Of a DNA stretch of 50,284 nt, positions 23,175 through 40,191 are shown one piece after another. The notes below the pieces were generated by a model. That model saw only the letters and a list, made by a program, of their open reading frames with translations, did not search any database and was not told the origin of the DNA. Position 1 is the first letter of the stretch, and each line of letters begins with the position of its first letter. The DNA comes from an uncultured Gemmiger sp. Lineage in GTDB: Bacteria; Bacillota; Clostridia; Oscillospirales; Ruminococcaceae. The translations under genes and the position numbers were made by a program. The DNA is taken from contig CALXHT010000015.1 in NCBI GenBank assembly GCA_944388215.1, positions 1 through 50,284 of the forward strand, in the 5' to 3' direction.

Positions 23175-23470
23175 GTTCCTTCTTTGCAAAGAAGGAACCG
23201 AAGAAATTCCAAACAAAAATATCCCGCAGGGTAACCCCTGCGGGATATTTTTATGGGAAGTCCCGGTTCTTCCCTGCAAACAGGGAACACACAGGAATGA
23301 ACCTGTAGGGCGGGGTCTTGACCCCGCCGGGGAATGGGCGGCCATGTGGGCTATCCTTTTTGCGAGGAAGGGCCGAAAAATCTCAACAAAAATATCCCGA
23401 GGGGGCTTTGAACCCCTCGGGATATTTTTCATTAAGAGTTCTTTTGGTTCTTTTCTTGCAAGAAAAGAAC
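23175..23470. repeat. Composite repeat region with two terminators
   Basis: In order: a perfect 24-bp palindrome (23175-23198) 4 nt after the scfB stop; a terminator at 23215-23253 (ATATCCCGCAGGG / CCCTGCGGGATAT); a single TGTAGGGCGGGG box (23304-23330); a second terminator at 23388-23430 (ATATCCCGAGGGG / CCCCTCGGGATAT); and a GTTCTTTTCTTG-type palindrome (23447-23470) 11 nt before the convergent gene's stop. No gene is seen in this 309-nt gap. Confidence 0.85.
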
Positions 23471-25907: not shown

Positions 25908-27695
25908 TTGACAACCAATGAAAAGATTGCCGCGCTGCGTGCCGCCGCGAAAGCCGCGGGCGCAGACGCCGTTTTGCTGATGACCAGCGACCCGCATTGC
26001 AGCGAGTATCTGCCGGCCTACTACAATGCCCTGGCGTGGTTCTCCGGCTTCACCGGCGAGAATTCCACCCTGGTGGTGACCCAGGAGGGTTCGGCGCTGT
26101 GGTGTGACGGCCGGTTCTATGTCCAGGCGGACAAGCAGCTGGCGGGCACCGAGATTGAGTGCATGCATGCCGGTTCGGCGGGTGTGCCCACGGTGGCGGA
26201 GTACCTGACGGACCATCTGAAGGCCGGGGAGACGCTGCTTTTGAACGGCAGCTGTGTGCCGGCGGACCTGGCCCACGAGTATGCCGATGTTCTTGCCAAG
26301 AACGGTGCTTCTCTGAAGAGCCAGGACGTGGCCAGCCCCATCTGGGATGCCACCGGCGAGCGTCCGGCGCTGCCCGATACCCCCTGCCAGCTGCTGACGG
26401 TGGCCCAGACCGGCGCCACGGCGGCGGAGAAGGTAGCCCGGGTGCGGGAAGAGCTGGCCAAGGCGGGTGCCACGGCGCTGGCCGTGACGGGTCTTGACTG
26501 TGTGGGCTGGCTGCTGAACCTGCGGGCGCGGGATCTGCCCTGCACGCCGCTGGCGGTGGCCTATGCGCTGGTGACTTCCAGGGACTGCACGCTGTTTGTG
26601 GCGCCGGGACGGCTGACTGACGCCGACGCCGCCACGCTGGCGGAAAACGGCGTGGCCATCCGCGGCTACGGCGATCTGCTGGACGCGGTGAGCAAGGTGG
26701 ATGCCGGCGAGGTGTTCCTGGTGGACGAGAAGGCCACCAACTTTGACCTGTACACGGCGCTGTCCGCCTACAAGACGGTGGCGGGCACCGATCCCATCTT
26801 TGCGCTGAAGGGCGTGAAGAACGAGGTGGAGCTGAAGAATATCCGGGAATGCCATATCCGGGACGGCGTGGCGGTGGTCCGGTTCGAGATGGACCTGGAG
26901 AAGGCGCTGGCCGAGGGCAAGGAGCTCTACGAGACCGACATTGAAAAGATGCTGCAGAAGCGCCGTGCCGAGCAGCCGGGCTATTTTGAGGACAGTTTCT
27001 CCACCATTGCGGCCTGGGGTCCCAACGCGGCGATGATGCATTACCATGCCGAGGGCGAGGTCAACAGCAAGATTGAGCGTCGCGGCTTCCTGCTGGTGGA
27101 TAACGGCGGCCAGTACGACTGCGGCACCACCGACATCACCCGGACCTATCCGGTGGGGCCCCTGACCGACGACGAGCGGAAGTATTACACCTGGGTGCTC
27201 CAGAGCCACATCGACATGGCCCGGGCGGTCTTCCTGGATTACTGCACGGGGTTTGCGCTGGACACCTTTGCCCGGGGTCCTGTGTGGGCCCACAAGGTGA
27301 ATTACCGCTGCGGCACCGGCCACGGTGTGGGCTTCATCTCGGGTGTGCATGAGGGTCCCCAGAGCCTGCGGCCCAACAACCCGGTGATCTTCAAGCCGGG
27401 CATGACCATCACCGACGAGCCGGGCATCTATGAGACCGACGAGGTGGGTATCCGCATCGAGAACGAGCTGGAGTGCATCGACCTGGGCGACAACCAGTAC
27501 GGCCATTGGCTGGGCTTCACGCCGCTGACGGTGGTGCCCATCGACACCACGCCGGTGATCGTGGATGAGCTGTCCCGTGTGCAGATCGATTGGCTGAACG
27601 CCTTCCACAAGCATGTCTATGAGACGCTGGCCCCCCGCCTGACCGACGAGGAAAAGACCTGGCTGGCCAACAAGTGCGCGCCCATCGGGCGGTGA
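25908..27695 (+). CDS. Xaa-Pro aminopeptidase (M24B)
   Basis: 595 aa. Two creatinase-like N-terminal domains (TTNEKIAALRAAAKAAGADA..., WFSGFTGENSTLVVTQEG) precede the pita-bread catalytic domain. The dimetal ligands are visible: LLVDNGGQYDCGTTDITRTYPVG (two Asp), GTGHGVGFISGVHEGP (His, about residue 469), ITDEPGIYETDEVGIRIENEL (two Glu). Length fits the roughly 590-aa clostridial and eukaryotic-type aminopeptidase P, which removes N-terminal residues before proline. The start is TTG at 25908, with GAGGGAG about 8 nt upstream and no in-frame ATG nearby. It is followed directly by a structured repeat element. Confidence 0.93.
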   Translation: MTTNEKIAALRAAAKAAGADAVLLMTSDPHCSEYLPAYYNALAWFSGFTGENSTLVVTQEGSALWCDGRFYVQADKQLAGTEIECMHAGSAGVPTVAEYLTDHLKAGETLLLNGSCVPADLAHEYADVLAKNGASLKSQDVASPIWDATGERPALPDTPCQLLTVAQTGATAAEKVARVREELAKAGATALAVTGLDCVGWLLNLRARDLPCTPLAVAYALVTSRDCTLFVAPGRLTDADAATLAENGVAIRGYGDLLDAVSKVDAGEVFLVDEKATNFDLYTALSAYKTVAGTDPIFALKGVKNEVELKNIRECHIRDGVAVVRFEMDLEKALAEGKELYETDIEKMLQKRRAEQPGYFEDSFSTIAAWGPNAAMMHYHAEGEVNSKIERRGFLLVDNGGQYDCGTTDITRTYPVGPLTDDERKYYTWVLQSHIDMARAVFLDYCTGFALDTFARGPVWAHKVNYRCGTGHGVGFISGVHEGPQSLRPNNPVIFKPGMTITDEPGIYETDEVGIRIENELECIDLGDNQYGHWLGFTPLTVVPIDTTPVIVDELSRVQIDWLNAFHKHVYETLAPRLTDEEKTWLANKCAPIGR

Positions 27696-27703
27696 GCTAC
27701 GCT

Positions 27704-27872
27704 CTCAAAGAGGAGGTTCGGATTCAGCGGCTGCGCCGCGTCTCCTGCACCTCCCCTTTGGATTCCCACCGTCGCCAAAAAGCAGGCCCTCATGCCTGAC
27801 GGCGACTCGTTCCCGCTTTTTGGCTCTCGATGTGTCCGCTTCGTCGGCGCATGTCCGCCGAAGCGGACGGGA
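27704..27872 (+). repeat. Structured 3'-UTR element, copy 1
   Basis: It begins 9 nt after the aminopeptidase stop. The first ~50 bp (CTCAAAGAGGAGGTTCGGAT...CTGCACCTCCC) recur in inverted orientation at 40141-40191. Three helices are predicted: CAGCGGCTGCGCCGCG; GCCAAAAAGC/GCTTTTTGGC (27774-27783 with 27815-27824); and TCCGCTTCG/CGAAGCGGA (27835-27843 with 27859-27867) around loop TCGGCGCATGTCCGC. The element ends with GGATTAA. No ORF is apparent. Confidence 0.8.
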
Positions 27873-27887
27873 TTAAGCGCTTTGTGC

Positions 27888-28005
27888 GTTCTTTTCTTGC
27901 AAGAAAAGAACCAAAAGAACTCTAATTAAAAATATCCCGAGGGGGTACCCCCTCGGGATATTTTTGTTTGGAATTTCTTCGGTTCATTCTTTGCAAAGAA
28001 GGAAC
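27888..28005. repeat. Palindrome - terminator - palindrome composite
   Basis: A GTTCTTTTCTTG-type perfect palindrome (27888-27911), a terminator at 27928-27965 (ATATCCCGAGGGG / CCCCTCGGGATAT with A and T runs on both sides) and a GTTCATTCTTTG palindrome with one mismatch (27982-28005). It separates the convergent aminopeptidase and CpeT-like genes and fills the rest of the 321-nt gap. Confidence 0.85.
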
Positions 28006-28016
28006 ACACAACACAC

Positions 28017-28562
28017 TCACGCCCGTTTGTACAGGATGGGCTCATCAAAACCGAAGGTGCGTTTGCCGTTGACTTCCATGCTCTCGGAGACTTCCAGCAC
28101 ATCGGCGCTGAACCGCTCGAACAGCGTGAACTTCAGCACCGGGCTGAACATCGACACGCTGCCGCCCTCCCAGACGCCGTCCTTCTCCCTGTACAAGGCC
28201 GGGGTGAACTTCGCCGACGGCTTCAGGTCCGCGTAGGCCACCGGCTTCATGTTGGCATAGGTGAAGCTGTCCTTGTCATAGCCCGCCGGCAGATCATAGC
28301 TGGTCAGCCGCACGCCGTCCTCTTCCTCCGTGAAGAGGAACAGATGGGGCGCCGCATGGGTGTTGCCGTTCGACGTAAAATAGCTCTCCTCCACCATGAA
28401 CACCCCCGCAAAATCCGCCGGCAGCCCGGTGATCTTGTCGTTGCAGGCCGTGTTCACATGCTCCGCATAGGGGAAGTTCTCCCCCGCCTTGGCTTCATAC
28501 TGGGCCTTGTTGTTGAAATGCCCGGTCAGAATCTTCATAAAATCATTCAGCTTGCTCATCAT
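28017..28562 (-). CDS. CpeT/CpcT-like (DUF1001) protein, tentative
   Basis: 181 aa. The opening LNDFMKILTGHFNNKAQYEA, then VFMVEESYF and HLFLFTEEEDGVRLTSYDLP, resembles the CpeT/CpcT beta-barrel family (lTGxFsnxaQ ... xExx ... Pyrqrxy), known as phycobilin lyases in cyanobacteria but also present in non-photosynthetic bacteria. No pigment role is expected here. Two adjacent ATGs (28562, 28559) are possible, with AAAGGGG upstream. The gene has a strong promoter bracketed by two dyads, implying tight repression. The family call rests on pattern memory only. Confidence 0.55.
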   Translation of the reverse strand: MMSKLNDFMKILTGHFNNKAQYEAKAGENFPYAEHVNTACNDKITGLPADFAGVFMVEESYFTSNGNTHAAPHLFLFTEEEDGVRLTSYDLPAGYDKDSFTYANMKPVAYADLKPSAKFTPALYREKDGVWEGGSVSMFSPVLKFTLFERFSADVLEVSESMEVNGKRTFGFDEPILYKRA

Positions 28563-28632
28563 GTATGCCCCTTTCTGAGGTTGGCCCGCCGCAGCGGGCG
28601 GAATGCATTCTCTGTGTCCCGCGGTGTTCCCG

Positions 28633-28674
28633 CTTGACAATGTCAAGTATAGTCCCATCGGTTGACTAAGTCAA
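28633..28674 (-). promoter_or_regulatory. Promoter with two palindromic operators
   Basis: Minus strand -35 TTGACT (28674-28669), 17-nt spacer, -10 TATACT (28651-28646). A dyad TTGACTTAGTCAA covers the -35 (28662-28674), and a second, CTTGACATTGTCAAG, lies just downstream of the -10 (28633-28647). Both fit TTGAC-N3-GTCAA, with centres 28 bp apart. A MarR-, TetR- or CRP/FNR-type dimeric regulator is likely. Confidence 0.75.
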
Positions 28675-28744
28675 GCAGTAAAATTCAAAACTTTCTGTGA
28701 ACAAAAAAGAGGCGGGGCCGAAGCCCCGCCCCCTGGCGGTTGTT

Positions 28745-29704
28745 TCAATGGGAAGAAATCTGCAGTACACCCGCTTCGTAGTCCTCCTGGCTGCAGGGCA
28801 CGCAGCGGTCCACCTGCCAGATGCCATCCCGCCAGATGGCCTGGATGGTCATATAGTCGGTGCCGGATTCCGTTTCGCCGGTGTTGCGGTTGACGCCGGT
28901 CCACTGTCCGGCGGCGTTCAGCGTGACCTTGTGGTCGCCGTAGGCCAGCCCGGCCGTCGAGAAGGTCATGTCGGAGGTATCCAGGTTGTACTGGACGGCG
29001 TCGTAGGCGCCCTGGGTGATATCCCCCTCCCAGCTCTGGCCGTTGAGGTCGCTGGAGAACCGCAGGTCCTCCACCTTGCGGGAGTTGAAGGCCTGCAGCT
29101 GGGACCGGTAGTACACCGACAGCATGGCGTCCAGGTAGGCTTCATCGGGGTCGTTGTAGCCTTCCGCGTCGCAGGGGGTCATGGTGCCGAAGGAAGCCGT
29201 GGGGTTGCTGGGCTTGGACACCAGGGCCAGGGAGGTCTCGTAGCTGTCGCCCTGGGGCTGGATGGCCCGCAGCAGGGTGTCGGTCTGGGTCAGGACGCTC
29301 CGGTCCAGATAGAGGCGGCCGTCCTCGGCGGCGGCGAAGGTGGTCTCCACCCCGTTGACGGTGATCCGCAGTCCCGGCACCTCGGTGAGGTTTTCCAGGT
29401 AGAGGCGGTCGGCCTCGCCGGGAACGGCGGTGGCGGCGGCGCTCTCCGCCGTGACGGTCACCGGGGCGTCGGCGGGCTGGGCGGAGCGGCCGAACAGCTG
29501 GAAGGCCCCCACCCACAGCACCAGGATGAGCACCACCACGGCGGCCACCGTCAGCACGACCACCCCGCGCTTGCGGCGCACAAAGGATTCCGGCGGCCAG
29601 CCGGGGGCCTGGGGCGGCACCTCCGAGAGAGGCGCACCGCACTTTGAGCAGAATTTTTCGCCGGGCCGGCGGCTGACGGCCCCGCACTTGGGACAGCGTT
29701 TCAT
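28745..29704 (-). CDS. Zinc-ribbon membrane protein with extracytoplasmic domain
   Basis: 319 aa. An N-terminal zinc ribbon (MKRCPKCGAVSRRPGEKFCS followed by KCG; cysteines 4, 7, 19, 22), a Pro-rich linker, a single TM helix (GVVVLTVAAVVVLILVLWVG, about residues 48-67) and a roughly 240-aa outer domain. The architecture is that of TcaA/YvbJ-like sensors. The outer domain has a small beta region (LRITVNGVETTFAAAEDGRLYL) and a NTF2-like C-terminus (AYLDAMLSVYYRSQLQAFNS ... IQAIWRDGIWQVDRC). Function is unknown. The ATG follows AAAGGAG. It lies 30 nt downstream of the glycosyltransferase gene and is probably co-transcribed. Confidence 0.8.
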   Translation of the reverse strand: MKRCPKCGAVSRRPGEKFCSKCGAPLSEVPPQAPGWPPESFVRRKRGVVVLTVAAVVVLILVLWVGAFQLFGRSAQPADAPVTVTAESAAATAVPGEADRLYLENLTEVPGLRITVNGVETTFAAAEDGRLYLDRSVLTQTDTLLRAIQPQGDSYETSLALVSKPSNPTASFGTMTPCDAEGYNDPDEAYLDAMLSVYYRSQLQAFNSRKVEDLRFSSDLNGQSWEGDITQGAYDAVQYNLDTSDMTFSTAGLAYGDHKVTLNAAGQWTGVNRNTGETESGTDYMTIQAIWRDGIWQVDRCVPCSQEDYEAGVLQISSH

Positions 29705-29734
29705 GGCAGACACTCCTTTCGGGGTGGGGCGGCG

Positions 29735-30595
29735 TCAGCTTTCCGCCATCGCCACCAGGTATTTGTAGATCTGGGGTTTGTACTCCTCGTACAGGCCCAG
29801 ATGTTCGTACAGTTCCTTGTAGTAGTTGAAGAGGGTGGCCCGGGTGGCCACCACATTCACCGGGTTCAGCACGGTGTGCACGGCGCTGCCGGGGGTGTTG
29901 TAGTAGTTGTAGACGGGGGTGGACAGGGCGTAGAACTTCTGGGCATAGCGGATGTAGCTGAGGTTGAAGTAGAGGTCCTCCGACCAGTCCAGTTCCTCGG
30001 CGCAGACCACGTCCTCATGGGCGCGGACGATATCGGCCCGGTAGAGCTTGTTCCACATGACGCCGTAGTAGAAGCTGGCCGGCTCCTGCATGAGCCCCGC
30101 GGCAAACTGTTCCTTGGTCATGGGGCCTTCCAGCAGGAAGCCGAAGGTCTGCACCTTGTCGGGGCGGGGCGGCCGGGGACGGCGGGCTTCCGCCTCCTCG
30201 CTGCGGGGGCGGGGCGGCGTGATGCGGTTGTAGTGGGCGATGACCAGGTCGGCGTCCGACCGGGTGGCCCGGTCCACCAGCAGTTCGGTGGCATTGGGCA
30301 TCAGGGTGTCGTCGGCGTCCACGAACTGGAGATAGTCCCCGGTGGCGAACTGCAGCCCCAGGTTGCGGGTGGCCGCCACCCCGCTGTTGGCCTTGTCGAT
30401 GAGCAGGATGCGCTTGTCCACCCCGGCGTACATCTGGCAGACCTGCAGGCTCACATCCTGGCTGCCGTCGTTGAGCAGCAGGATCTCCAGGTTGCGGTAG
30501 GTCTGGCGGCGGATGCTCTCCAGACACCGGGCAATGTGGTCCTGGGCGTTGTAAATGGGTACAATGATGCTGACCAGCGGCGAATCCTGCGGCAT
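29735..30595 (-). CDS. Family 2 glycosyltransferase
   Basis: 286 aa GT-A enzyme. It has VSIIVPIYNAQDHIARCLES near the N-terminus, LNDGSQD, a conserved KANSGVAATRNLGL and the metal-binding FVDADD (residues 91-96), with EDLYFNLSY further on as the acceptor-side acidic motif. Such enzymes transfer a nucleotide-activated sugar to a surface glycan; the substrate is unknown. AAGGAGG precedes the ATG. A promoter lies at 30652-30624 and the zinc-ribbon gene follows. Confidence 0.9.
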   Translation of the reverse strand: MPQDSPLVSIIVPIYNAQDHIARCLESIRRQTYRNLEILLLNDGSQDVSLQVCQMYAGVDKRILLIDKANSGVAATRNLGLQFATGDYLQFVDADDTLMPNATELLVDRATRSDADLVIAHYNRITPPRPRSEEAEARRPRPPRPDKVQTFGFLLEGPMTKEQFAAGLMQEPASFYYGVMWNKLYRADIVRAHEDVVCAEELDWSEDLYFNLSYIRYAQKFYALSTPVYNYYNTPGSAVHTVLNPVNVVATRATLFNYYKELYEHLGLYEEYKPQIYKYLVAMAES

Positions 30596-30623
30596 AACGG
30601 CACGCCTCCTTTTTGTTACTATC

Positions 30624-30652
30624 ACAATACCATAAATTCGCCGCCGTGACAA
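30624..30652 (-). promoter_or_regulatory. Promoter of the glycosyltransferase gene
   Basis: Minus strand TTGTCA (30652-30647), 17-nt spacer, TATTGT (30629-30624), divergent from the M32 gene, whose own -10 may be TAGAAT near 30676. Confidence 0.6.
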
Positions 30653-30723
30653 TGGAAAATTCTGCCGCACTGTGGTAGAATAGCAGACAGCAACACAATT
30701 TTACAAAGGACGAGGTAAATCCC

Positions 30724-32214
30724 ATGAAAGACTCGATTGTGCGCCTGCGGGCGCTGGAAAAGCAGCTGTATGCCTACCGGTATGCGCTGAACGTGGTGGA
30801 TTTTGACGCCGAGACGGTGGCCCCCGAGGGGGGCGCCGACGGCCGGGCGGAGGCCTGCGAGGTGCTGAGCCGGGCCAGTTTTGATCTGCTGGTGAACGAG
30901 GACACCGCCGCGCTGCTGCGGCAGGCGGCAGCCGACGCCGAGGACGACCAGCAGACCGCCGAGGTACGGGAGCTGCAGCGGCAGTACGACGAGATCGCGA
31001 AAATTCCCGCCGCCGAGTACGCGGCCTTCACCAAGCTGGTGCAGCAGAGCATCCCGGTGTGGACGAAAGCCAAGCGCACCAACGATTTTGCGCTGTTTGC
31101 GCCGTTTCTTGAAAAGATCGTGGCGGCCCGCCGGGCCCAGGCCCGGTACTTTGCCCCCGACCGCGACCCCTACGAGGTCTGGCTGGACCGGTACGAGCGG
31201 GGCCTGACCATCGCCCAGTGCGACGAGTTTTTCGCCACGCTGCGGGCCACCATTGTGCCGCTGCTGGCGGCCATCCGGGACCATGGCGCCCCCATCCGCA
31301 CCGATTTTCTCGACCAGGACTGGCCGCTGGACGCCCAGAAGAAGGTCTCTGAAAAAATCATGGAGCTGTGGGGCCTCGAGCCGGAACACTGTCTGCTGGC
31401 CGAGAGCGAGCACCCCTTCACCACGGAATTCTGGCGGGGGGATGTGCGCATCACCACCCACTATATGCCCCGGGACATGTTCTCCAACCTCTACAGTGTG
31501 GCCCACGAGGGCGGCCATGCCCTCTACGAGCGGCACATCGCGCCGGAGCTGGACTACACAGCGGTGACGGGCGGTTCCACCATGGGCCTGCACGAGAGCC
31601 AGAGCCGGCTGTTTGAGAACTATGTGGGCCGGAGCCGGGCCTTTGTGCACTGCCTCTACCCCACCCTGCGGGAGCTCTTCCCCACCCAGCTGGCCGACGT
31701 TTCCGAGGAGGAGATCTGGCGGGCGGTGAACCGGGCGGAGCCGGGGCTGATCCGCACCGAGGCGGACGAGCTGACCTACGCGCTGCACATCATGGTACGG
31801 TACGAGCTGGAAAAGGCGATGATCCAGGGCACGCTGGCGGTCAAGGACCTGCCGGCGGCCTGGAACGCCAGGTACAAGGAGTACCTGGGCCTGGACGTGC
31901 CGGACGACGGCCACGGCTGCCTGCAGGACATCCACTGGGCCATGGGCGACATGGGCTACTTCCCCAGCTATGCCCTGGGCAGCGCCTACGGGGCCCAGGC
32001 CATCGCTGACCTGCGCAGGACCATGGACCTGGACGCCCAGTGGGCGGCGGGCGACCTGGAACCGCTGAAAAACGCTCTCTGCGACCGGCTGTGGAAGTAC
32101 GGCTGCTCCAAAGAACCGGCCTGGCTGGTGAGGAGCCTGTGCGGCGGCGACTTTGACCCCCGCTACTTCACCGACTACCTGAAGGCCAAGTACACCGACC
32201 TGTACAAGCTGTAA
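30724..32214 (+). CDS. M32 metallocarboxypeptidase (Taq-type)
   Basis: 496 aa. The zinc motif HEGGH sits in NLYSVAHEGGHALYERHI (about residues 255-272), followed by the family element GSTMGLHESQSRLFENYVGRS supplying the third ligand, and IRTEADELTYALHIMVRYELE. Length is standard for M32 (about 500 aa). It releases C-terminal residues from peptides and has a broad preference excluding proline. Together with the Xaa-Pro aminopeptidase it points to peptide catabolism. GGACGAGG precedes the ATG. Confidence 0.93.
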   Translation: MKDSIVRLRALEKQLYAYRYALNVVDFDAETVAPEGGADGRAEACEVLSRASFDLLVNEDTAALLRQAAADAEDDQQTAEVRELQRQYDEIAKIPAAEYAAFTKLVQQSIPVWTKAKRTNDFALFAPFLEKIVAARRAQARYFAPDRDPYEVWLDRYERGLTIAQCDEFFATLRATIVPLLAAIRDHGAPIRTDFLDQDWPLDAQKKVSEKIMELWGLEPEHCLLAESEHPFTTEFWRGDVRITTHYMPRDMFSNLYSVAHEGGHALYERHIAPELDYTAVTGGSTMGLHESQSRLFENYVGRSRAFVHCLYPTLRELFPTQLADVSEEEIWRAVNRAEPGLIRTEADELTYALHIMVRYELEKAMIQGTLAVKDLPAAWNARYKEYLGLDVPDDGHGCLQDIHWAMGDMGYFPSYALGSAYGAQAIADLRRTMDLDAQWAAGDLEPLKNALCDRLWKYGCSKEPAWLVRSLCGGDFDPRYFTDYLKAKYTDLYKL

Positions 32215-32241
32215 ATTTACAGTTTGTTCACAGCGGAAGAC

Positions 32242-32270
32242 TTGCAATCGGGCAAAGCATTATATACTAT
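32242..32270 (+). promoter_or_regulatory. Promoter of the thioredoxin pair
   Basis: TTGCAA (32242-32247) with TATACT (32263) or TACTAT (32265-32270) at 15 or 17 nt spacing, about 34 nt upstream of the ATG. Confidence 0.55.
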
Positions 32271-32303
32271 TATAGTAGGAATTCGGAAAACAGGAGGTAT
32301 CCT

Positions 32304-33176
32304 ATGGCACGTACAGAGATTGCCATCATCGGCAGCGGGCCCGCGGGGGTATCGGCGGCCATCACCGCCAGTCTGCGGGGCAAGCCGGTGCTGCTGTTTG
32401 GCAGCAAAACTTTGAGCGACAAGATTGGCAAAGCCCATACCATCCGCAATTATCCGGGGCTGCCCGACATCAGCGGCGAGGAGCTGCGGGCGGCGTTCCA
32501 GCGGCATCTGGACGTGATGGGCGTGACGGTGACCGAGGCCCGGGTGAACGCGGTGTACGCCATGGGGGACTATTTTGCCATCCAGACGGCCAGCGAAACC
32601 TACGAGGCCACAGCGGTGATCCTGGCCACGGGTGTGGTGCAGGGCAAGCCGCTGCCCGGCGAGGAGGAGTATCTGGGCCGCGGGGTGAGTTACTGCGCCA
32701 CCTGTGACGCGCCCCTTTACCGGGGCAAGCGGGTGGCGGTGATCGGGTCCAGCCCGGCCGCCGAGCCGGAGGCCGCCTATCTTGCCGAGGTGGCGGCATC
32801 GGTGCTCTACCTGCCCCTCTATGAAGGGACGCCCGACCTGCCCGCCGCGGTGCAGGTCATCCGGGAGAAGCCCACAGCGGTGGTCGGCGAGTCGCTGGTG
32901 ACGGCGCTGCACACCGACGGCGGGGCGTACCCGGTGGACGGAGTGTTTTTGCTGCGGGACGCCATGGCGCCCACCCAGCTGGTACCGGGGCTGGAGGGTT
33001 CCGGCGGGCACGTGGCGGTGAACGCCAGGATGGAGACCAACATTCCGGGCTGTTTTGCCTGCGGCGACGCGGTGGGGCTGCCCTATCAGTATGTGAAAGC
33101 GGCGGGCGAAGGCAACGTGGCGGCCTTATCGGCGGTGGCGTACCTGGCGGCCCGCAAGCAGAGCGCAAAGGAGTAA
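32304..33176 (+). CDS. Thioredoxin reductase-like flavoprotein, probably not NADPH-dependent
   Basis: 290 aa. The FAD fold (IAIIGSGPAGVSAAITASLRG, residues 6-26), a redox-active CATC in VSYCATCDAPLY (about 131-134) and the second FAD motif GCFACGDAVGLPYQYVKAAGEG are those of low-molecular-weight thioredoxin reductases. However, the NADPH subdomain reads VAVIGSSPAAEPEAAYLAEV: the GxGxxA motif is altered, and the usual HRRxxxR segment is replaced by YLPLYEG. That pattern fits ferredoxin-dependent flavin thioredoxin reductases described in Clostridia. It forms an operon with the thioredoxin gene 6 nt downstream. Confidence 0.85.
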   Translation: MARTEIAIIGSGPAGVSAAITASLRGKPVLLFGSKTLSDKIGKAHTIRNYPGLPDISGEELRAAFQRHLDVMGVTVTEARVNAVYAMGDYFAIQTASETYEATAVILATGVVQGKPLPGEEEYLGRGVSYCATCDAPLYRGKRVAVIGSSPAAEPEAAYLAEVAASVLYLPLYEGTPDLPAAVQVIREKPTAVVGESLVTALHTDGGAYPVDGVFLLRDAMAPTQLVPGLEGSGGHVAVNARMETNIPGCFACGDAVGLPYQYVKAAGEGNVAALSAVAYLAARKQSAKE

Positions 33177-33182
33177 TGCGCA

Positions 33183-33494
33183 ATGGTACACGAAGTACAC
33201 AAGAATGATCTGACCCAGGCCCAGGCTGCCGACGTGGCGGTGCTGGATTTCAACGCCATCTGGTGCAATCCCTGCAGGATGCTGGCCCCGGTGCTGGAGG
33301 CGGCCAGCGAGGAGCTGGAGGGCAAGGCGCTGTTCTACGGCATCGACGTGGACGAGAACCAGGCCCTGGCCCAGCAGTTCGGCATTTCCAGCATTCCGGC
33401 GCTGGTGGTCCTCAAGAACGGCCAGCCGATGGCCCGGCAGGTGGGATTCATGCCCAAAGTGACCCTCATGCACTGGCTGGGTACGGTGCTGTAA
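33183..33494 (+). CDS. trxA: Thioredoxin with WCNPC active site
   Basis: 103 aa thioredoxin fold. The active site is AIWCNPCRMLAPVLEAAS (WCNPC instead of WCGPC, cysteines about residues 28 and 31), and the cis-proline segment is ISSIPALVVLKNGQ. It is presumably the substrate of the upstream reductase, passing electrons to ribonucleotide reductase, peroxidases and other disulfides. The GPC to NPC change may alter redox potential or partner choice. The stop is followed 2 nt later by a repeat palindrome. Confidence 0.92.
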   Translation: MVHEVHKNDLTQAQAADVAVLDFNAIWCNPCRMLAPVLEAASEELEGKALFYGIDVDENQALAQQFGISSIPALVVLKNGQPMARQVGFMPKVTLMHWLGTVL

Positions 33495-33495
33495 C

Positions 33496-33848
33496 CTACT
33501 TTCTTTGCAAAGAAAGTAGGCAAAGAAACTCCAACCAAAAATGCACGGTCCATGGCCGTGCATTTTTTATAAAAAACAAAGGAATGGTTTGGTTGTAGGG
33601 CGGGGTCTTGACCCCGCCGGGGAATCGGACAGCCACCGCAACATTCCGCGGCGGGGAAGAATCCCCGCCCTACAGGTAAACAAACATGGGATGCACCCGG
33701 TATGTCCCGGCAGGGTACGGCGGCAGGGCTGTGTGTTCCCTGTTTGCAGGGGGGAACCGGAATTTCCCATAAAAATATCCCGCAGGGGTTACCCTGCGGG
33801 ATATTTTTGTTTGGAGTTTCTTCGGTTCCTTCTTTGCAAAGAAGGAAC
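33496..33848. repeat. Composite repeat region with two terminators
   Basis: It contains a CTACTTTCTTTG-type perfect palindrome (33496-33519), a terminator near 33536-33571 (ATGCACGG / CCGTGCAT with T tail) ending the trx operon, a full 81-bp inverted repeat (33594-33674, TGTAGGGCGGGG ... CCCCGCCCTACA), a terminator at 33771-33808 (ATATCCCGCAGGG / CCCTGCGGGATAT) and a GTTCCTTCTTTG-type palindrome (33825-33848). No gene is seen in this 363-nt gap. Confidence 0.85.
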
Positions 33849-33857
33849 AAACCGTTC

Positions 33858-34640
33858 CTACTTCCCGTAGCTTGCCAGGAACTGCCGGGTGCGTTCCTCC
33901 TTGGGATGGTCGATGACCTCCTTGGCGGGGCCCTGTTCCACCACCACACCGCCGTCCATGAAGAGGATGCGGTCCGCCACATCCCGGGCGAACTTCATCT
34001 CATGGGTGACGATGATCATGGTGGTCTTGTTGGCCGCCAGGTCCCGCAGCACCCGCAGCACCTCGCCGGTGAGTTCCGGGTCAAGGGCCGAGGTGGGCTC
34101 ATCGAAACAGAGGATATCCGGCTTCAGGGCCAGGGCGCGGGCGATGGCCACACGCTGCTGCTGTCCGCCCGAGAGCTGGTGGGGATAATGCCCCGCCCGG
34201 TCGGACAGGCCCATATCGGCCAGCAATTGCCGGGCGTGTTCCTCGATCTCCGCAAAGATTTCCTTTTTGTGCTGCTTGTAGTCGGGGCGTTCTTTCGCCA
34301 GCAGCTGTTCCGCCAGCATGACGTTCTGCAATGCCGTATACTGGGGGAAGAGGTTGAAATTCTGGAACACCAGCCCGAAATGCAGCCGCTTTTTGCGGAT
34401 ATCCGCCTCGCTCCGGGTATGGGCGTCGGCGGCGCTCCAGAGGGTCTCGCCCCCCACCGTGATGGACCCGGTGTCGGCGGTTTCCAGGAAATTCAGGCAG
34501 CGCAAAAGGGTTGTCTTGCCGGAACCCGATGATCCGATAATGGCGATGGCCTCGCCCTCCTCCAGCGTAAAGGAGATATCCCGCAGCACGGCGGTACTGC
34601 CGAAGCTCTTGCCGATGCCGGCCACTTCCAATAATGCCAT
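33858..34640 (-). CDS. Polar amino-acid ABC transporter ATP-binding protein (set B)
   Basis: 260 aa. Walker A GSSGSGKTTLLRC (about residues 36-48), QTY-type loop LVFQNFNLFPQYTALQN, signature [15 protein letters not shown], Walker [14 protein letters not shown] and switch HEMKFA match GlnQ/HisP ATPases. It forms an importer with the two upstream genes. The gap to the permease is 13 nt. The residue pattern cannot fix the amino acid carried. Confidence 0.92.
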   Translation of the reverse strand: MALLEVAGIGKSFGSTAVLRDISFTLEEGEAIAIIGSSGSGKTTLLRCLNFLETADTGSITVGGETLWSAADAHTRSEADIRKKRLHFGLVFQNFNLFPQYTALQNVMLAEQLLAKERPDYKQHKKEIFAEIEEHARQLLADMGLSDRAGHYPHQLSGGQQQRVAIARALALKPDILCFDEPTSALDPELTGEVLRVLRDLAANKTTMIIVTHEMKFARDVADRILFMDGGVVVEQGPAKEVIDHPKEERTRQFLASYGK

Positions 34641-34653
34641 AGCAGTCCCCTCC

Positions 34654-35313
34654 TCAGCGGAAATAGGCCAGCCGCTTTTCCAGCCAGCCGAAGAGCAGCG
34701 TCAGCGCGCCCACAAAGACCAGGAAGAAGATCGCCGTGGAGAACAGCGGCCAGATCAGGCCCTTGGCGCTGTACTCCTTGGCCATCATGATGATGTCCTT
34801 GTTGGCGATGACGTTGGCCAGGGAGGTATCCTTGACCAGCGTGATGATCTCGTTGCCCATGGGGGGCAGGATGCGCTTGATGACCTGGAGCAGCGTGACT
34901 TTAAAGAAGATCTGGCTGCGGGTCATGCCCAGCACCTGGCCGGCCTCGGTCTGTCCCTTGGGGACGGCCTGGATGCCGCCGCGGTAGATCTCGGAAAAAT
35001 AGCAGGCGTAGTTGATGGCAAAGGCCACCACGGCCGCCACCAGACGGCCGCTGGACCCGGACGGCCAGGGACTGGTAAAGCCCATCAGGCCGGGGCCCAG
35101 GTAGATCACAAGGATCTGGAGCATCAGCGGGGTGCCGCGGATGATCCACACAAAGGTTTTGACCGCCCCGCGCAGGGGTGCGAACCGGTTCATCGACCCG
35201 AAGGCCACGATGAGCCCCAGCGGCACCGCAAAGAGCAGCGTCAGGCCGAAGAGCTGGCAGTTCAGCCAGAAGGATTCGGTCAGGCGGCCCCAGATTACCA
35301 GCGCCTCGTCCAT
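34654..35313 (-). CDS. Polar amino-acid ABC transporter permease (set B)
   Basis: 219 aa, about five TM helices. The C-terminal half has the HisM/GlnP motif GAxxAVPKGQTEAGQVLGMTRSQ (RGGIQAVPKGQTEAGQ...), the cytoplasmic loop that docks on the ATPase. It begins MDEALVIWGRLTESFW. Its ATG overlaps the stop of the binding-protein gene by one base (TGATG). Confidence 0.92.
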   Translation of the reverse strand: MDEALVIWGRLTESFWLNCQLFGLTLLFAVPLGLIVAFGSMNRFAPLRGAVKTFVWIIRGTPLMLQILVIYLGPGLMGFTSPWPSGSSGRLVAAVVAFAINYACYFSEIYRGGIQAVPKGQTEAGQVLGMTRSQIFFKVTLLQVIKRILPPMGNEIITLVKDTSLANVIANKDIIMMAKEYSAKGLIWPLFSTAIFFLVFVGALTLLFGWLEKRLAYFR

Positions 35314-36185
35314 CAGTCTGCCAGGGTCAGGCCGTACTTGTCGGCCAGGGTCTGCATGGTGCCGTCGGCCTTCAGGGCGTCGAAGGCTGCATCCACAGCG
35401 GCGGCCGCGTCGCTGCCCTTGCGGAAGGCCACGCCGTACTCCTCGGCGTTGAGCTCATCCACGATCTCCAGGTCGGCGTAGTCGGTGCCCTCGCCGATCA
35501 TGGCGGAGGCCAGCGTCAGGTCCAGGACGGCGGCGTCGGCGGTGCCGGCGGCCACTTCCATCAGGCAGTCGGTCTGGACGCTCTTGCTCACGTAGTCGGC
35601 CTGGGACAGGTTCTCGTCCTCCTGGATGGTGGTCTCACCGGCGGAACCGGCCTCGGCCACCACGGTCTTGCCCACCAGGTCGGCGGTGGAGGTGTAGCCG
35701 CTGCCCGTCTTCATGACCACCACCTGGGCGTTCTTGGCGTAGGGCTTGGTGCAGGCGGTGTTGGCCATGATGTCATCGGTCAGGGTCATGCCGTTCCAGA
35801 TGCAGTCGATGCTCTTGGCATCCAGCTCCACCACCTTGGTATCCCAGTTGATCTCCACGAACTCCGGCTCCACGCCCAGCTGCTCGCAGACAGCGGTGGC
35901 CAGCTCGGTGTCAAAGCCCACGAACTCGCCGTTCTCGTCGGTGTAGTTCATGGGGGCGTAGACGGTGTAGCCAATGGTCATCTTGCCCTTGTCCTTGATG
36001 TACTGCAGGTCGCTCTCGCCGGTGGTCTCGGCCTCGGCGGCCTCCGCGGTGGAAGCGGCCTCGCTGGCGGCGGAGGACGCCTCGCTGGAAGCGGCCTCCG
36101 AGGAAGTGGAAGCGGCGGTGGAGCCGCAGGCGGCCAGGCTGGCGGTCATACCGGCGGCCAGCAAAAGACTGATGAGTTTTTTCAT
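35313..36185 (-). CDS. Amino-acid ABC transporter substrate-binding lipoprotein (set B)
   Basis: 290 aa. Signal peptide MKKLISLLLAAGMTASLAAC with lipobox LAAC, then a Ser/Ala/Glu-rich linker (residues 22-50, repeated SSEAAS) to the globular family 3 solute-binding fold. DENGEFVGFDTELATAVCEQLG is the diagnostic motif, with QTDCLMEVAAGTADAAVLD in the second lobe. It binds an amino acid outside the membrane. The ATG follows GGAGGAG. It is the first gene of a binding protein-permease-ATPase operon. Confidence 0.93.
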   Translation of the reverse strand: MKKLISLLLAAGMTASLAACGSTAASTSSEAASSEASSAASEAASTAEAAEAETTGESDLQYIKDKGKMTIGYTVYAPMNYTDENGEFVGFDTELATAVCEQLGVEPEFVEINWDTKVVELDAKSIDCIWNGMTLTDDIMANTACTKPYAKNAQVVVMKTGSGYTSTADLVGKTVVAEAGSAGETTIQEDENLSQADYVSKSVQTDCLMEVAAGTADAAVLDLTLASAMIGEGTDYADLEIVDELNAEEYGVAFRKGSDAAAAVDAAFDALKADGTMQTLADKYGLTLAD

Positions 36186-36307
36186 GAGTAGTACTCCTCC
36201 CTGATGAATCCCGTTTTTCCGCACTCTATCTTTACTATCCTAAAGCAGTAAAGCAACGGTATTGTTTAATAGTACCGCAAAAACACCGTTTGCGCAAGGG
36301 AAAACGG

Positions 36308-36350
36308 CAAAAAAGCGGCAGGAGGGTGACAAAAACCGCCCCTCCTGCCG
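36308..36350 (-). terminator. Intrinsic terminator of amino-acid importer set A
   Basis: Minus strand stem CGGCAGGAGGG / CCCTCCTGCCG followed by CTTTTTT, about 6 nt after the ATPase stop. The remaining upstream region to 36185 has AT-rich DNA that must hold the set B promoter, but no clear -35/-10 pair is seen. Confidence 0.9.
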
Positions 36351-36355
36351 GAAAA

Positions 36356-37088
<733 letters not shown>

Positions 37089-37102
<14 letters not shown>

Positions 37103-37763
37103 GGTTGAGCCTCCTTTCCATCTGCTTGGCCAGCACCGACAGGATGGTGATGACGATCAGGTACATGACAGCCACGATGGCCCAGACCTGGAAGGACATG
37201 AAGGAGTTGGCCACCACGTTCTTGGCGGTGTTGACCAGCTCGGGGAAACCGATGACCGACAGGATGGAGGTATCCTTGAGGGTGATGATGAACTGGTTGA
37301 TGATGCTGGGGATCATGGTGCGGATGGCCTGGGGCAGCACCACCCGGAACATGGCGCGCCAGTAGGGCAGGCCCAGGCTGCGGGCGGCTTCCATCTGGCC
37401 CTTGTCCACGCTCTCGATGCCGGCGCGGATGATCTCGGCCATATAGGCGCCGCAGTTCAGCGCCAGGCAGATGGTACCGGCCTGCAGGGCGGTGAGGGTG
37501 ACGCCGCCGAAGCCCAGGATGGTGTTGAGCAGATAGGGAATGCCGAAATAGATGAAGTAGGCCAGCACGATCATGGGCACGCCGCGGATGGCGTCCACGA
37601 AGATGATGGAGATGATGTTGCAGGCCCGGTTTTTGACCACGCTGAGCAGGCCGAAGATCAGGCCCAGGATGCAGGCGAAGAACAGCCCGCAGAGTGCCAG
37701 CAGCAGCGTCTGGCCCATGGCCGTCAGCAGCAGGCCGCCGTAGGTGGTGATGATCTGGATCAA
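37089..37763 (-). CDS. Polar amino-acid ABC transporter permease (set A)
   Basis: 224 aa, about five TM helices, with [25 protein letters not shown] as the ATPase-docking motif and [19 protein letters not shown] earlier. TTG at 37763 is taken as start because AAAGGAG lies 10 nt upstream and [12 protein letters not shown] is a natural family N-terminus; the frame stays open upstream only through intergenic repeat DNA. It overlaps the ATPase gene. Confidence 0.88.
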
Positions 37764-37802
37764 GGGCGGAACTCTCCTTTCCGAAATGAATGGGGGAACA
37801 CG

Positions 37803-37838
37803 AAAAAGCGGGGGCGCCTGCGACAACAGGCGTCCCCG
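37803..37838 (-). terminator. Hairpin with T tract between binding-protein and permease genes (set A)
   Basis: Minus strand stem GGGGACGCCTG / CAGGCGCCCCC, then GCTTTTT, 40 nt before the permease start. As it lies inside the operon, it probably lowers downstream expression relative to the binding protein. Confidence 0.75.
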
Positions 37839-37868
37839 CGGGCGATTGAATTTGTAAGGGATCTTTTT

Positions 37869-38056
37869 AAATCCGTCGCCGGGGGCGGACATGTGCCGAC
37901 ACCGGCGACACCTCCAGGGAAATTTGGCCCAAAATTGTGTGCGAGGCGCCCGCGCCGAGTGCGCGGTTTTGGGTCAAATTTTGTCGAAGAGGAATCCAAA
38001 GGGGGAAACAGGAGTGTCAGGCACCGCCGTGCACGACTGTTTCCTTCTTTGATTGA
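37869..38056 (-). repeat. Structured 3'-UTR element, divergent copy 3
   Basis: It directly follows the binding-protein stop, in the sense direction. Shared with copies 1 and 2 are CCCTTTGGATTCC (copy 1), a long helix (37920-37934 pairing with 37967-37981, AAATTTG and CCCAAAA arms), the loop TCGGCACATGTCCGC inside helix GTCGCCGG/CCGGCGAC (37875-37882 with 37902-37909), and a GGATTTAAA tail. Helix sequences differ from the other copies but stay complementary. Together with the terminator it explains the 296-nt gap. Confidence 0.65.
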
Positions 38057-38059
38057 AGC

Positions 38060-38884
38060 TTAGCCCAGGTACTTGGCCAGGATCTCGTCGTACTTGCCGT
38101 TTTCCTTGATGTCGGCAAGACCGGCGTTGAACATATCCAGCAGTTCCTGGTTGTCGGCGTTGAAGATGGCGAAGCCGTAGTCGCCGCCCTCATTGGCGGT
38201 GTCTTCCAGGACCTTCAGGGCCAGGCCGCCGTCCTTGATGGAAGCCTGCATGATGGGGGTATCCTCGAAGCAGGCTGCGCACTGGCCGCCCAGCACAGCC
38301 TGGTACATCGTGGGAGAATCCTCAAAGGACTGGATGGTGAAGCCGTACTGATCCTTCAGGCTCTCGGCGTAGGCAGCGCCCTGGGTGCCGGTCTTGACGG
38401 CAACGGTCTTGCCCTGCAGGCCGTCGAAGCCGGTGATGTCGGAGTTGGCAGGCACGGTCATGGTCTGGGTGGCGGTGTAGTAGCCGTCAGAGAACAGCCA
38501 GCCGGAGTCCTTGCGCTCCTGGGTGATGGAGGCGCCGGCGATCATGCCGTCCGCCTGGCCGGCCTGGCAGGCAGCGATGGCGCTGTCCCAGCCCAGGCTC
38601 TTCAGTTCGTACTTGAAGCCCTGGTCCTCGGCGATAGCCGCCAGGATATCCACGTCGATGCCCACGAAGTCGCCGTTGGCGTCGGTGTATTCAAAGGGCT
38701 TGAAAACGGTATCGGTGGCGATGACCCAGGTCTTGTCGGAACCGGCGGTCTCGGCGGTGGAAGCGGCCTCGCTGGAGGAGGCGGCCTCACTGGAAGCAGC
38801 CTCGCTGGAAGAAGCGGCGCCGCCGCAGGCAGCCAGAGACAAAGCCATCATGGCAGCCATACCAAAAGCAAGCAATTTTTTCAT
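38060..38884 (-). CDS. Amino-acid ABC transporter substrate-binding lipoprotein (set A)
   Basis: 274 aa. Signal peptide MKKLLAFGMAAMMALSLAAC with lipobox LAAC and a linker of SSEAAS repeats, then DANGDFVGIDVDILAAIAEDQG, the family 3 solute-binding motif, and YAESLKDQYGFTIQSFEDSP. It is a paralogue of the protein at 35313-36185. Expression is probably controlled by the leader hairpins at 38948-38995. The ATG follows GAGAGGACGAG. Confidence 0.93.
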   Translation of the reverse strand: MKKLLAFGMAAMMALSLAACGGAASSSEAASSEAASSSEAASTAETAGSDKTWVIATDTVFKPFEYTDANGDFVGIDVDILAAIAEDQGFKYELKSLGWDSAIAACQAGQADGMIAGASITQERKDSGWLFSDGYYTATQTMTVPANSDITGFDGLQGKTVAVKTGTQGAAYAESLKDQYGFTIQSFEDSPTMYQAVLGGQCAACFEDTPIMQASIKDGGLALKVLEDTANEGGDYGFAIFNADNQELLDMFNAGLADIKENGKYDEILAKYLG

Positions 38885-38947
38885 AGTGTTCTCGTCCTCT
38901 CTCTATAATATCTGCGGCCCGCGGCCGCATCCGATGCGGGGACGTAA

Positions 38948-38995
38948 ACAAAAAGAGCAATAGCAATCCAATACGGATGCTATCGCCCTTGATAG
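38948..38995 (-). promoter_or_regulatory. Candidate transcription attenuator ahead of the set A importer
   Basis: On the minus strand a hairpin AGGGCGATAGCA / TGCTATTGCTCT (38989-38978 with 38965-38954, G-U pairs allowed) is followed by TTTTT, forming a terminator about 20 nt into the transcript. A mutually exclusive hairpin CTATC-AAGGGC-GATAG (38995-38980) uses its 5' arm and could act as antiterminator. No T-box motif or known riboswitch was recognised. Confidence 0.6.
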
Positions 38996-39017
38996 TTCCC
39001 ATACATCGTACTTTCCT

Positions 39018-39045
39018 ATTATACCAGCTTTCAAAGGAAAGTCAA
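39018..39045 (-). promoter_or_regulatory. Promoter of amino-acid importer set A
   Basis: Minus strand TTGACT (39045-39040), 16-nt spacer, perfect TATAAT (39023-39018). The spacer contains a small dyad, CTTTC and GAAAG. Confidence 0.8.
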
Positions 39046-39095
39046 GCTGTAACGGCGTTTTGGGTTTCTTTTTTAAAGTTTTGAGTCGATTTTTC

Positions 39096-39686
39096 TTACA
39101 AATTCCGTGCCGCGCACAAAAGAATCTCCAGCGCCTTGTCCAGACCCAGTTTGCTGGTGCAGAGGGTCAGGTCGTAGTTGCGGCTGTCGCCGTAGACCTG
39201 GCCGGTGTGCTTGGTGCAGTAGTTGCGCCGGGCGCGGTCGGCGGAATCCATGTCGGCTTCCAGCTGTTCCAGCGGGGTGTCGGGCATGAGGGTCTGCATG
39301 TGGGCCAGCCGCCAGTTGCGGTCGGCGTGGATGAAGACACGCAGGCAGTGGTCGAATTCCCGCAGGATGTAGTCGGCGTTGCGGCCCACCAGTACACAGC
39401 TTTCCTTGTCGGCCAGTTCCCGGATGGCCTTCACCTGGGCGTTCCACAGTTCTTCGCTTAAGGGACGGTCGTAGAAGTTGAACAGGCTCTGGGTGAAGCC
39501 GAATTCGTGGGGGACCCGCTCGTCCCAGCGGCGCACCTGTTCGGGGCTTAAGTGGGCGCTGGCCTTGGCGGTGCGCAGGATGATGTCGCGGTCATAGTAG
39601 GCGATGCCCAGTTCCCGGGCCAGTTCGCGGCCCAGCTGACCGCCGCCGGCGCCGAATTCCCGGCCGATGGTGATGATTCGTTTCAT
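39096..39686 (-). CDS. Cytidylate kinase-like family protein
   Basis: 196 aa P-loop protein. It opens MKRIITIGREFGAGGGQLGR, where GREFGAGGG replaces the canonical GxxGxGKS/T loop, and continues ELGIAYYDRDIILRTAKASA, SCVLVGRNADYILRE and LRVFIHADRNWRLAHM. This is the cytidylate kinase-like family (PF13189) common in Firmicutes and distinct from Cmk. The lysine of Walker A is absent, as usual in this family. Phosphate acceptor unknown. The ATG at 39686 follows GGAGGTTG; a longer reading starts inside a repeat. Confidence 0.85.
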   Translation of the reverse strand: MKRIITIGREFGAGGGQLGRELARELGIAYYDRDIILRTAKASAHLSPEQVRRWDERVPHEFGFTQSLFNFYDRPLSEELWNAQVKAIRELADKESCVLVGRNADYILREFDHCLRVFIHADRNWRLAHMQTLMPDTPLEQLEADMDSADRARRNYCTKHTGQVYGDSRNYDLTLCTSKLGLDKALEILLCAARNL

Positions 39687-39752
39687 GAGGCAACCTCCTT
39701 GGGTGCAGGGCGCCGCAGCCGCACGGCCCGGCGCCGGTCTTCCGTTGCCTTT

Positions 39753-39782
39753 ATGATACCATGCCACCAGCCTCCCCTGCAA
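39753..39782 (-). promoter_or_regulatory. Promoter of the cytidylate kinase-like gene
   Basis: Minus strand TTGCAG (39782-39777), 18-nt spacer, TATCAT (39758-39753). Confidence 0.6.
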
Positions 39783-39790
39783 GTATCCCC

Positions 39791-39944
39791 CTACTTTCTT
39801 TACAAAGAAAGTAGGCAAAGAAATTCCAACATTTTAACCCGGGAATTTGTCTGTTCCCGATGGCTGTAGGGCGGGGTCTTGACCCCGCCGGAGAATGGGA
39901 CAGCAACCGCAAAATTCCTCGGCGGGGATAAATCCCCGCCCTAC
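39791..39944. repeat. Composite intergenic repeat, second full copy
   Basis: Same order as 7418-7650: a CTACTTTCTTT palindrome with one central change (39791-39814), the CAAAGAAATTCCAACATTTT unit with AACCCGGGAATTTGTCTGTT, and an 80-bp inverted repeat (39865-39944). Together with the structured element that follows it accounts for the 520-nt gap 39687-40206, where no gene is seen. Confidence 0.85.
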
Positions 39945-40023
39945 GAATAATCGGAAATGGGCTATGGGAGTAATCGCCTGTAGCCCGCCCCTACTCCAAC
40001 CTTTTGGTCGCGGAATTTTAAAA

Positions 40024-40191
40024 CCATCGCCCTCGGCGGACATGTGCCGACGAGGGCGATACTTTGAGAGCGTCCGGGCCCGTTCGAGTCGCCGCCTGCG
40101 GCATGAGAACGTGTTCGGGCGCGACGGTGGGTGTTCAAGAGGGAGGTGCAGGAGACGCGGCGCAGCCGCTGAATCCGAACCTCCTCTTTGA
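40024..40191 (-). repeat. Structured 3'-UTR element, copy 2
   Basis: Sense to and starting 16 nt after the ABC-2 permease stop. The first 51 bp match copy 1 almost exactly (CTCAAAGAGGAGGTTCGGAT ... ACCTCCC). Further on it shares CCCACCGTCGC, CTCATGCC and GGCGACTCG. Its last helix TCGCCCTCG/CGAGGGCGA (40027-40035 with 40051-40059) encloses TCGGCACATGTCCGC. The helix arms differ from copy 1 by compensating changes. Confidence 0.8.

What the first reader, a model, noticed from the sequence alone, without database searches (positions are those of the whole stretch)
27704..40191. Three-copy structured 3'-UTR element with compensating helix changes
Copies at 27704-27872 (+), 40024-40191 (-) and a divergent one at 37869-38056 (-) each begin a few nt past a stop codon and in the sense direction of that gene (Xaa-Pro aminopeptidase, ABC-2 permease, amino-acid binding protein). 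All three carry the loop TCGGCRCATGTCCGC closed by a helix whose arms differ completely yet remain complementary: TCCGCTTCG/CGAAGCGGA, TCGCCCTCG/CGAGGGCGA, GTCGCCGG/CCGGCGAC. An internal helix also changes (GCCAAAAAGC/GCTTTTTGGC in copy 1, AAATTTG+CCCAAAA arms in copy 3). That pattern suggests selection for RNA (or hairpin DNA) structure rather than sequence. It could be a mobile non-coding element, an mRNA-stability or processing element, or an undescribed ncRNA family. I know of no named family with this loop.
Basis: partly seen in the sequence, partly recalled or inferred. Interest (0 to 1): 0.75.

Follow-up and report, generated by a model that had tools for sequence, protein, structure and literature searches.

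The report
Mobile hairpin elements at gene ends
Gut bacteria of the genus Gemmiger and some of their relatives carry many copies of a small multi-hairpin element that sits just behind genes, keeps its loops fixed while its stems change in matched pairs, and behaves like a tiny mobile DNA element that lands at stem-loops.

Summary
The three window copies belong to a roughly 180-nt repeat that a model finds in 32 of 35 Gemmiger genomes (three only weakly) and patchily in the order (17 of 394 genomes, own genome included). The window has no Rfam match at gathering score. Its hairpins covary strongly. In co-directional gene pairs the element is sense in 69 of 78 cases. The copy at 27704 is best read as a recent gain: it is missing, with short clean junctions, from a same-species closed genome and three other relatives. 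A longer form with ends CAGnnTGTCRA...TYGACAnnCTG has a flush direct repeat, a whole stem-loop, on both sides in 15 of 20 copies, against 1 of 380 swapped controls. Best reading: a non-autonomous mobile element family that targets stem-loops at gene ends. No mobilising enzyme was found. Compensation is almost purely Watson-Crick and G.U is not favoured over A.C, so RNA-level selection is not shown; DNA hairpins or arm-to-arm copying remain possible. It works like BOX or bcr repeats but was not shown to belong to either.

The parts
27696..27876 (+). Element 1 (subtype B): about 181-nt insert just past the stop codon of the M24 peptidase gene (TGA 27693-27695); structured core begins CAAAG at 27706
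   Evidence: Absent with a short junction in G061 and G004 and in G019 and G021; aligned in A2, R3 match
27706..27761 (+). Element 1 hairpin P1, CAAAGAGGAGGT / ACCTCCCCTTTGG outer arms
   Evidence: sequence; subtype B alignment A2
27774..27824 (+). Element 1 hairpin P2, GCCAAAAAGC / GCTTTTTGGC arms; possible pseudoknot GTCGC 27771-27775 with GCGAC 27802-27806 (by eye, untested)
27834..27868 (+). Element 1 hairpin P3 with the conserved loop TCGGCGCATGTCCGC at 27844-27858
37867..38051 (-). Element 2 (subtype A): P1 38051-37996, P2 about 37982-37920, P3 37909-37875, loop 37885-37899
   Evidence: R1 match 37859-38051, 204.4 bits (this copy was also in the model's training set); coordinates
40025..40190 (-). 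Element 3 (subtype B): P1 40190-40135, P2 region 40125-40070, P3 40061-40025, loop 40036-40050
   Evidence: R3 match 40018-40062, 66 bits (in the training set); coordinates; present in G061 and G004

Best explanation
A family of small, non-autonomous mobile elements of Oscillospirales that settle at the 3' ends of genes. Each folds into two or three hairpins (in Gemmiger P1, P2, P3) with fixed loops and free but complementary stems. Shown: many dispersed copies; strong covariation; sense, gene-end placement; one clean presence/absence site best read as a recent gain; and, in the longer form, ends CAGnnTGTCRA/TYGACAnnCTG flanked by a duplicated whole stem-loop, some of them terminator-like. Inferred: an enzyme supplied in trans recognises the folded ends or hairpins and joins the element at the two feet of an extruded target stem-loop, duplicating it (the 'pathway b' outcome drawn in the IS1272 paper). 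Window-type copies lack these ends and may be shortened descendants or a shorter mobile form.
For: 32 of 35 Gemmiger genomes match, three of them weakly; patchy in other families, 17 of 394 genomes with the own one, 13 of these with only 1-2 matches. Empty site for the 27704 copy in four relatives. Direct repeats of 19-35 bp lie flush outside both ends in 15 of 20 longer copies, against 1 of 380 swapped flanks; all 15 fold with 6 or more pairs, 13 with 8 or more. A second scan, without a control of its own, listed 13 insertions, including divergent relatives L214 and L218. Co-directional gene pairs 69 sense against 9 anti; convergent 21 against divergent 3. Precedent for stem-loop targets: IS1272, PMC5678879 (passages). 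Loops stay invariant while stems change.
Against: No mobilising enzyme found: the IS1182-type domain PF13751 in 0 of 10 element-bearing genomes; Y1_Tnp PF01797 in 5 of 10, absent from two genomes with 64 and 52 model matches. No near-identical donor of the 27704 copy: best 85% among the loci fetched by then, which is not a whole-genome search of all carriers. The right-end pattern of the longer form has 0 exact matches in G000 and G061, so window-type copies do not show these ends. Only 5 of 15 duplicated stem-loops are followed by 4 or more T within 10 nt. Several 'empty' sites are decay relics, not pre-insertion sites, and the parA-parB copy is shared with G001. The sense bias could also mean a host function.
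Confidence: 0.58

Rival explanations
1. A host-useful 3'-UTR RNA element: transcribed with the upstream gene, its hairpins block 3' exonucleases or recruit a protein through the fixed loops.
For: Sense to the upstream gene in 98 of 112 elements that have one; invariant loop over several families; orthologous copies kept in G000, G061 and G004; two compensated pairs between copies at an orthologous site, L009 against L249.
Against: Model matches per genome run from 0 to 64; orthologous sites are often empty or decayed; G.U is not favoured over A.C. Whether particular gene classes are preferred was not tested.
Confidence: 0.25
2. The covariation is mutational: hairpin arms are rewritten by template switching or exchange of whole hairpins between copies, so stems stay complementary without selection for pairing; only the loops are selected.
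For: Almost no one-side intermediates in P3, 6 against 148 two-side cells; inside P2 and P3 G.U 13 against A.C 61 cells, where 13 tRNAs gave 11 to 2; at one orthologous site P1 and P3 stems differ wholesale while P2 arms are identical, L006 against L245.
Against: Does not explain invariant loops or the sense bias; the tRNA control is small, covers two stems only and is not a homologous set; by columns A.C (14) and G.U (11) are about even, so the excess rests on few events.
Confidence: 0.25
3. The element is an intrinsic terminator.
For: P3 is GC-rich and often followed by T-rich sequence.
Against: A T run of 6 or more in the 16 nt past the P3 stem in only 12 of 117; some copies already sit behind a separate terminator-like hairpin, as at rpmH-rnpA; one lies between parA and parB.
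Confidence: 0.06
4. A retro-element (bacterial SINE-like): the structured RNA is copied by a reverse transcriptase that recognises P3.
For: Copies reduced to P3 and the 3' end exist (L001, L018, L094).
Against: L002, at first taken for such a copy, keeps part of P1 and its site is full-length in G004, so truncation there is decay; a copy with a damaged 3' half also occurs (L061). Reverse transcriptases were not searched for.
Confidence: 0.08

Closest known systems
BOX, RUP and SPRITE repeats of Streptococcus pneumoniae (PMC3049150, passages)
   Same: Small dispersed repeats with folded transcripts, in intergenic regions, probably mobilised in trans; SPRITE is terminator-like.
   Different: Not compared by sequence here. 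In this family stems covary around fixed loops and longer copies duplicate a whole target stem-loop; the passages seen do not describe that.
bcr1-bcr18 repeats of the Bacillus cereus group (PMC3446304, passages; original papers not read)
   Same: bcr1-3 are called MITE-like; 40-51% of bcr copies were found within mRNAs in two strains; bcr10 and bcr18 have conserved secondary structure.
   Different: Different host group; hairpin target duplication and 3' sense placement are not described in the passages seen. Not compared by sequence.
IS1272 / IS1182 family (PMC5678879, passages)
   Same: Targets inverted repeats able to form stem-loops; the paper's model includes a route that duplicates the whole stem-loop.
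   Different: IS1272 replaces the stem-loop and leaves no duplication; the IS1182-type domain PF13751 was found in 0 of 10 carriers here.
REP elements with RAYT (Y1) transposases (PMC3733652, passages)
   Same: Extragenic palindromes thought to be miniature mobile elements.
   Different: REPs are 20-40 bp with GTAG or CGTC tags; these are about 180 nt and multi-hairpin, and Y1_Tnp was not found in 5 of 10 carriers.

Membership tests
MITE (miniature inverted-repeat transposable element) | Short, no coding capacity | tested here: met
   13 longer-form insertions of 175-254 bp
MITE (miniature inverted-repeat transposable element) | Terminal inverted repeats | tested here: inconclusive
   Longer form has CAGnnTGTCRA/TYGACAnnCTG; right-end pattern absent from G000 and G061
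MITE (miniature inverted-repeat transposable element) | Target-site duplication | tested here: inconclusive
   15 of 20 longer copies; none recognisable at the 27704 copy
MITE (miniature inverted-repeat transposable element) | Related autonomous element with transposase | tested here: inconclusive
   Not found: right-end pattern in 8 genomes, 15 regions fetched and 10 scanned for a distal left end, ORFs listed for two; PF13751 0 of 10
IS1182-type derived element | IS1182-type transposase domain PF13751 in the carrier genome | tested here: not met
   0 of 10 genomes, 4 of them not of high quality
REP/RAYT | Y1 transposase in carrier genomes | tested here: not met
   5 of 10; not found in G007, G013, G095, G187, G427
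Any Rfam family | Match at gathering score over the element | tested here: not met
   0 in the window. In 7 element loci at E<=2 only two tRNAs passed gathering; sub-threshold ncS011 (E 0.0022, 26.9 of 48 bits) overlaps the L008 element on the other strand and is probably chance
Intrinsic terminator | Hairpin directly followed by a long T run | tested here: not met
   T run of 6 or more in 12 of 117
Structured RNA under selection | Covariation above shuffled and slid controls | tested here: met
   on all five measures; on three of five
Structured RNA under selection | G.U tolerated over A.C on the transcribed strand | tested here: not met
   P2+P3 interior G.U 13, A.C 61 cells; 11 and 14 columns
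Structured RNA under selection | Transcribed | not testable with these tools
   No RNA-seq available
BOX or bcr repeats | Sequence homology | not tested
   No sequence comparison with these repeats was made

The most novel reading that the evidence does not exclude
A new kind of small mobile element whose mobility depends on folded hairpins with fixed loops (as RNA or single-stranded DNA), which reads stem-loops at gene ends, often terminators, as structural targets, duplicates the whole stem-loop so that the upstream gene keeps its own copy, and evolves by rewriting whole stems in concert.
Probability: 0.2. Interest if true: 0.82.

Novelty: new variant of a known kind. Interest (0 to 1): 0.58.

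Why it matters
If true, some Oscillospirales genomes carry an element family, for which I found no description, that marks gene ends in up to dozens of places, including rpmH-rnpA, gyrB-gyrA and parA-parB (genes confirmed by Pfam), and that uses the shape rather than the sequence of stem-loops as its landing site. Duplication of the stem-loop would explain how insertion at a terminator can be harmless. The near absence of one-sided intermediates in strongly covarying stems is also a caution: covariation, the usual proof of RNA structure, may here arise from DNA-level arm copying or hairpin exchange. That can be tested directly.

Tried and rejected
Rfam at gathering score on the window and at E<=2 on 7 loci: two tRNAs and sub-threshold matches only. 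P3 as a terminator: rejected. 5' truncation as a retro-transposition signature: L002 proved to be decay of a site that is full in G004. L007 (parA-parB) as a G000-only gain: rejected because G001 has the same P3 arms at that site. L006 and L010 (in G061) and L243 (in G000) as clean empty sites: rejected, relics remain; L008 is doubtful because G061 keeps a P1-like stretch; L005 was not resolved (621 nt of other sequence between the flanks); at the L009 site G061 has other repeats. IS1182-type and Y1 transposases as the mobiliser: not supported; the Y1 gene near a P3 in L341 reads as an IS200-type gene beside a damaged copy. Autonomous element by right-end pattern: 15 regions fetched, 10 scanned for a distal left end, none found; one candidate region (L291) had no recognisable left end. 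Phage and plasmid collections with element 2: no match. First gene caller trained itself on antisense frames and was replaced. A first regular expression for subtype B found nothing because of a position bound and was corrected. Paper searches listed no description of this element that I recognised from titles, abstracts and the passages read; most subscription papers are not held and supplements could not be opened.

Full report
What was checked. All three window copies are present as described, with exact loops, complementary arms and starts 8-16 nt past stop codons. The own genome holds 13 exact loop sites and none for the reversed pattern. Of 61 genomes (own and related), 27 have the loop, 26 of them in the same genus; the only hits of G016 and G017 and the one outside the genus (G053) lack matching arms and look like chance. 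The genus is inferred to be Gemmiger from named records with the same elements and contig lengths.

Anatomy. From 157 distinct loop sites in 163 sequences (162 loci and the window) I set aside 31 as chance hits after reading context and arms, leaving 126. Subtype A (52 of 55 full copies aligned; L073, L101 and L117 dropped for an insertion, an internal deletion and a truncation) has P1 with an inner GGC...GCC hairpin, P2 with a nearly fixed tip (CGCGCAC...CTCGCACACA), and P3 with the loop. Subtype B (17 of 20 aligned; two long variants and one misfiled copy dropped) has another P1 and P2 but the same P3 loop. Other Oscillospirales carry further P1/P2 types with the same P3, or a P3 with a shorter loop. 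In two G018 copies the inner stem CGG/CCG is CUG/CAG.

Covariation. A1: 97.0% of cells paired against 87.6% shuffled (0 of 500) and 39-49% slid; 21 of 47 pairs change on both sides; score 0.244 against 0.083. The cross-type P3 set (43 of the 126 sites, chosen for diversity; 42 distinct rows): 96.3% paired against 68.7%; score 0.693 against 0.147; but the number of pairs with a both-side change and the number of pair types do not exceed shuffles (466 and 417 of 500 reach them). The models' training copies match by construction.

A result against a simple RNA reading. I took the best 88 of 113 model matches (80 distinct): P2 has 9 G.U and 38 A.C cells, P3 has 66 and 23 (62 of the G.U at the outermost pair), P1 has 87 and 12 (85 of the G.U at the two outer pairs). 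Of the A.C cells in P2, 24 are one column; in the P2 and P3 interior 14 columns hold A.C and 11 hold G.U, so about even. Thirteen of 16 distinct tRNAs from the loci (those ending in CCA; acceptor and T stems only) gave 11 G.U and 2 A.C, a small control. Two-sided changes are therefore not passing through G.U in the usual way.

Placement. With a simple codon-model gene caller trained on Gemmiger loci and used on all loci, 117 elements with 8 or more of 10 P3 arm positions paired were placed: 98 of 112 that have an upstream gene are sense to it; co-directional pairs 69 to 9 (binomial 7e-13, assuming independence, which related copies do not fully meet); convergent 21, divergent 3; 7 were flagged inside an ORF, read as over-extended starts. 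Longer-form copies alone: 15 sense, 3 anti.

Movement. Element 1 is missing from closed genome G061 of the same species and from G004, G019 and G021, each with 9-12 nt between the stop codon and the next repeat; G000 has about 181 nt more. This is best read as a gain in G000. No donor above 85% was seen among the loci fetched. Elements 2 and 3 are present in G061; element 2 carries 117 nt more there, and in G004 window 37916-38042 of it is missing while P3 remains. At parA-parB 23 of 35 genomes read straight through, while G000, G001, G021 and G023 are split by 222-344 nt; the other 8 were not called. G001 carries an orthologous copy there. Seven further loci were tested: L007 is cleanly absent from G061 and G004; L008 absent but with a P1-like stretch in G061; L006 and L010 leave relics in G061; L009 is replaced by other repeats in G061; L243 leaves a relic in G000; L005 was not resolved. 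By reading, seven copies are shared by G000 and G061. Both gain and loss therefore occur.

Longer form. Copies in several genera have an upstream hairpin beginning CAGnnTGTCRA and a right end TYGACAnnCTG. In 15 of 20 such copies a 19-35 bp direct repeat lies flush outside both ends; swapping flanks among copies gave 1 of 380. All 15 repeats fold into a stem-loop of 6 or more pairs, 13 of 8 or more; four of the 15 are not unusual against shuffles of their own letters (12-34 of 200 as good), and 5 of 15 right copies are followed by 4 or more T. So the target is a stem-loop, and only some are clearly terminator-like. A second scan listed 13 insertions, 7 of them not in the first set, with no control of its own. 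IS1272 is known to choose stem-loops but replaces them; duplication is one of its drawn routes (PMC5678879, passages).

What is missing. No mobilising gene was found, reverse transcriptases were not searched, and no expression data exist. G000 is 88.8% complete.

Verdict. The finding holds and grows: a genus-wide, order-scattered family of hairpin elements, most likely mobile and stem-loop-targeting, whose covariation is real but not yet proof of RNA function.

Noticed in passing
window 27888-28009, 12834-12954, 23172-23294, 33731-33852: A second repeat family: palindromes GTTCCTTCTTTGCAAAGAAGGAAC flanking an AAAAATATCCCGnn...CGGGATATTTTT hairpin, like a bidirectional terminator; one variant, GTTCTTTTCTTGCAAGAAAAGAAC, also differs on both arms.
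   Followed up: no
window 7570-7650, 23301-23336, 33594-33677, 39838-39944: Another intergenic repeat, TGTAGGGCGGGGTCTTGACCCCGCC, in several copies; in L298 a similar TGTAGGGCGGGCG... stretch lies between CAG...CTG-type ends.
   Followed up: no
G061 ortholog of window 37992-37994 (L237); L099, L244, L245, L280: A recurrent insert of about 117 nt, GGGTTGCGG..GCCGCAGGC..GCAGCCC, sits at the same point in P1 of several copies, as if nested or an optional domain.
   Followed up: partly
L076, L080: Copies of another type occur as close pairs, about 270-280 nt apart, in an uncultured Clostridia genome.
   Followed up: no
L160: A full subtype A element lies on an IMG/VR viral contig, perhaps a prophage or mis-binned host DNA.
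   Followed up: no
L007, L009, L012 and L033 (5' flanks): Several copies follow a short inverted repeat that spans the stop codon of the upstream gene, such as ACGAGCGG-TAA-CCCGCTCGT in L007.
   Followed up: no
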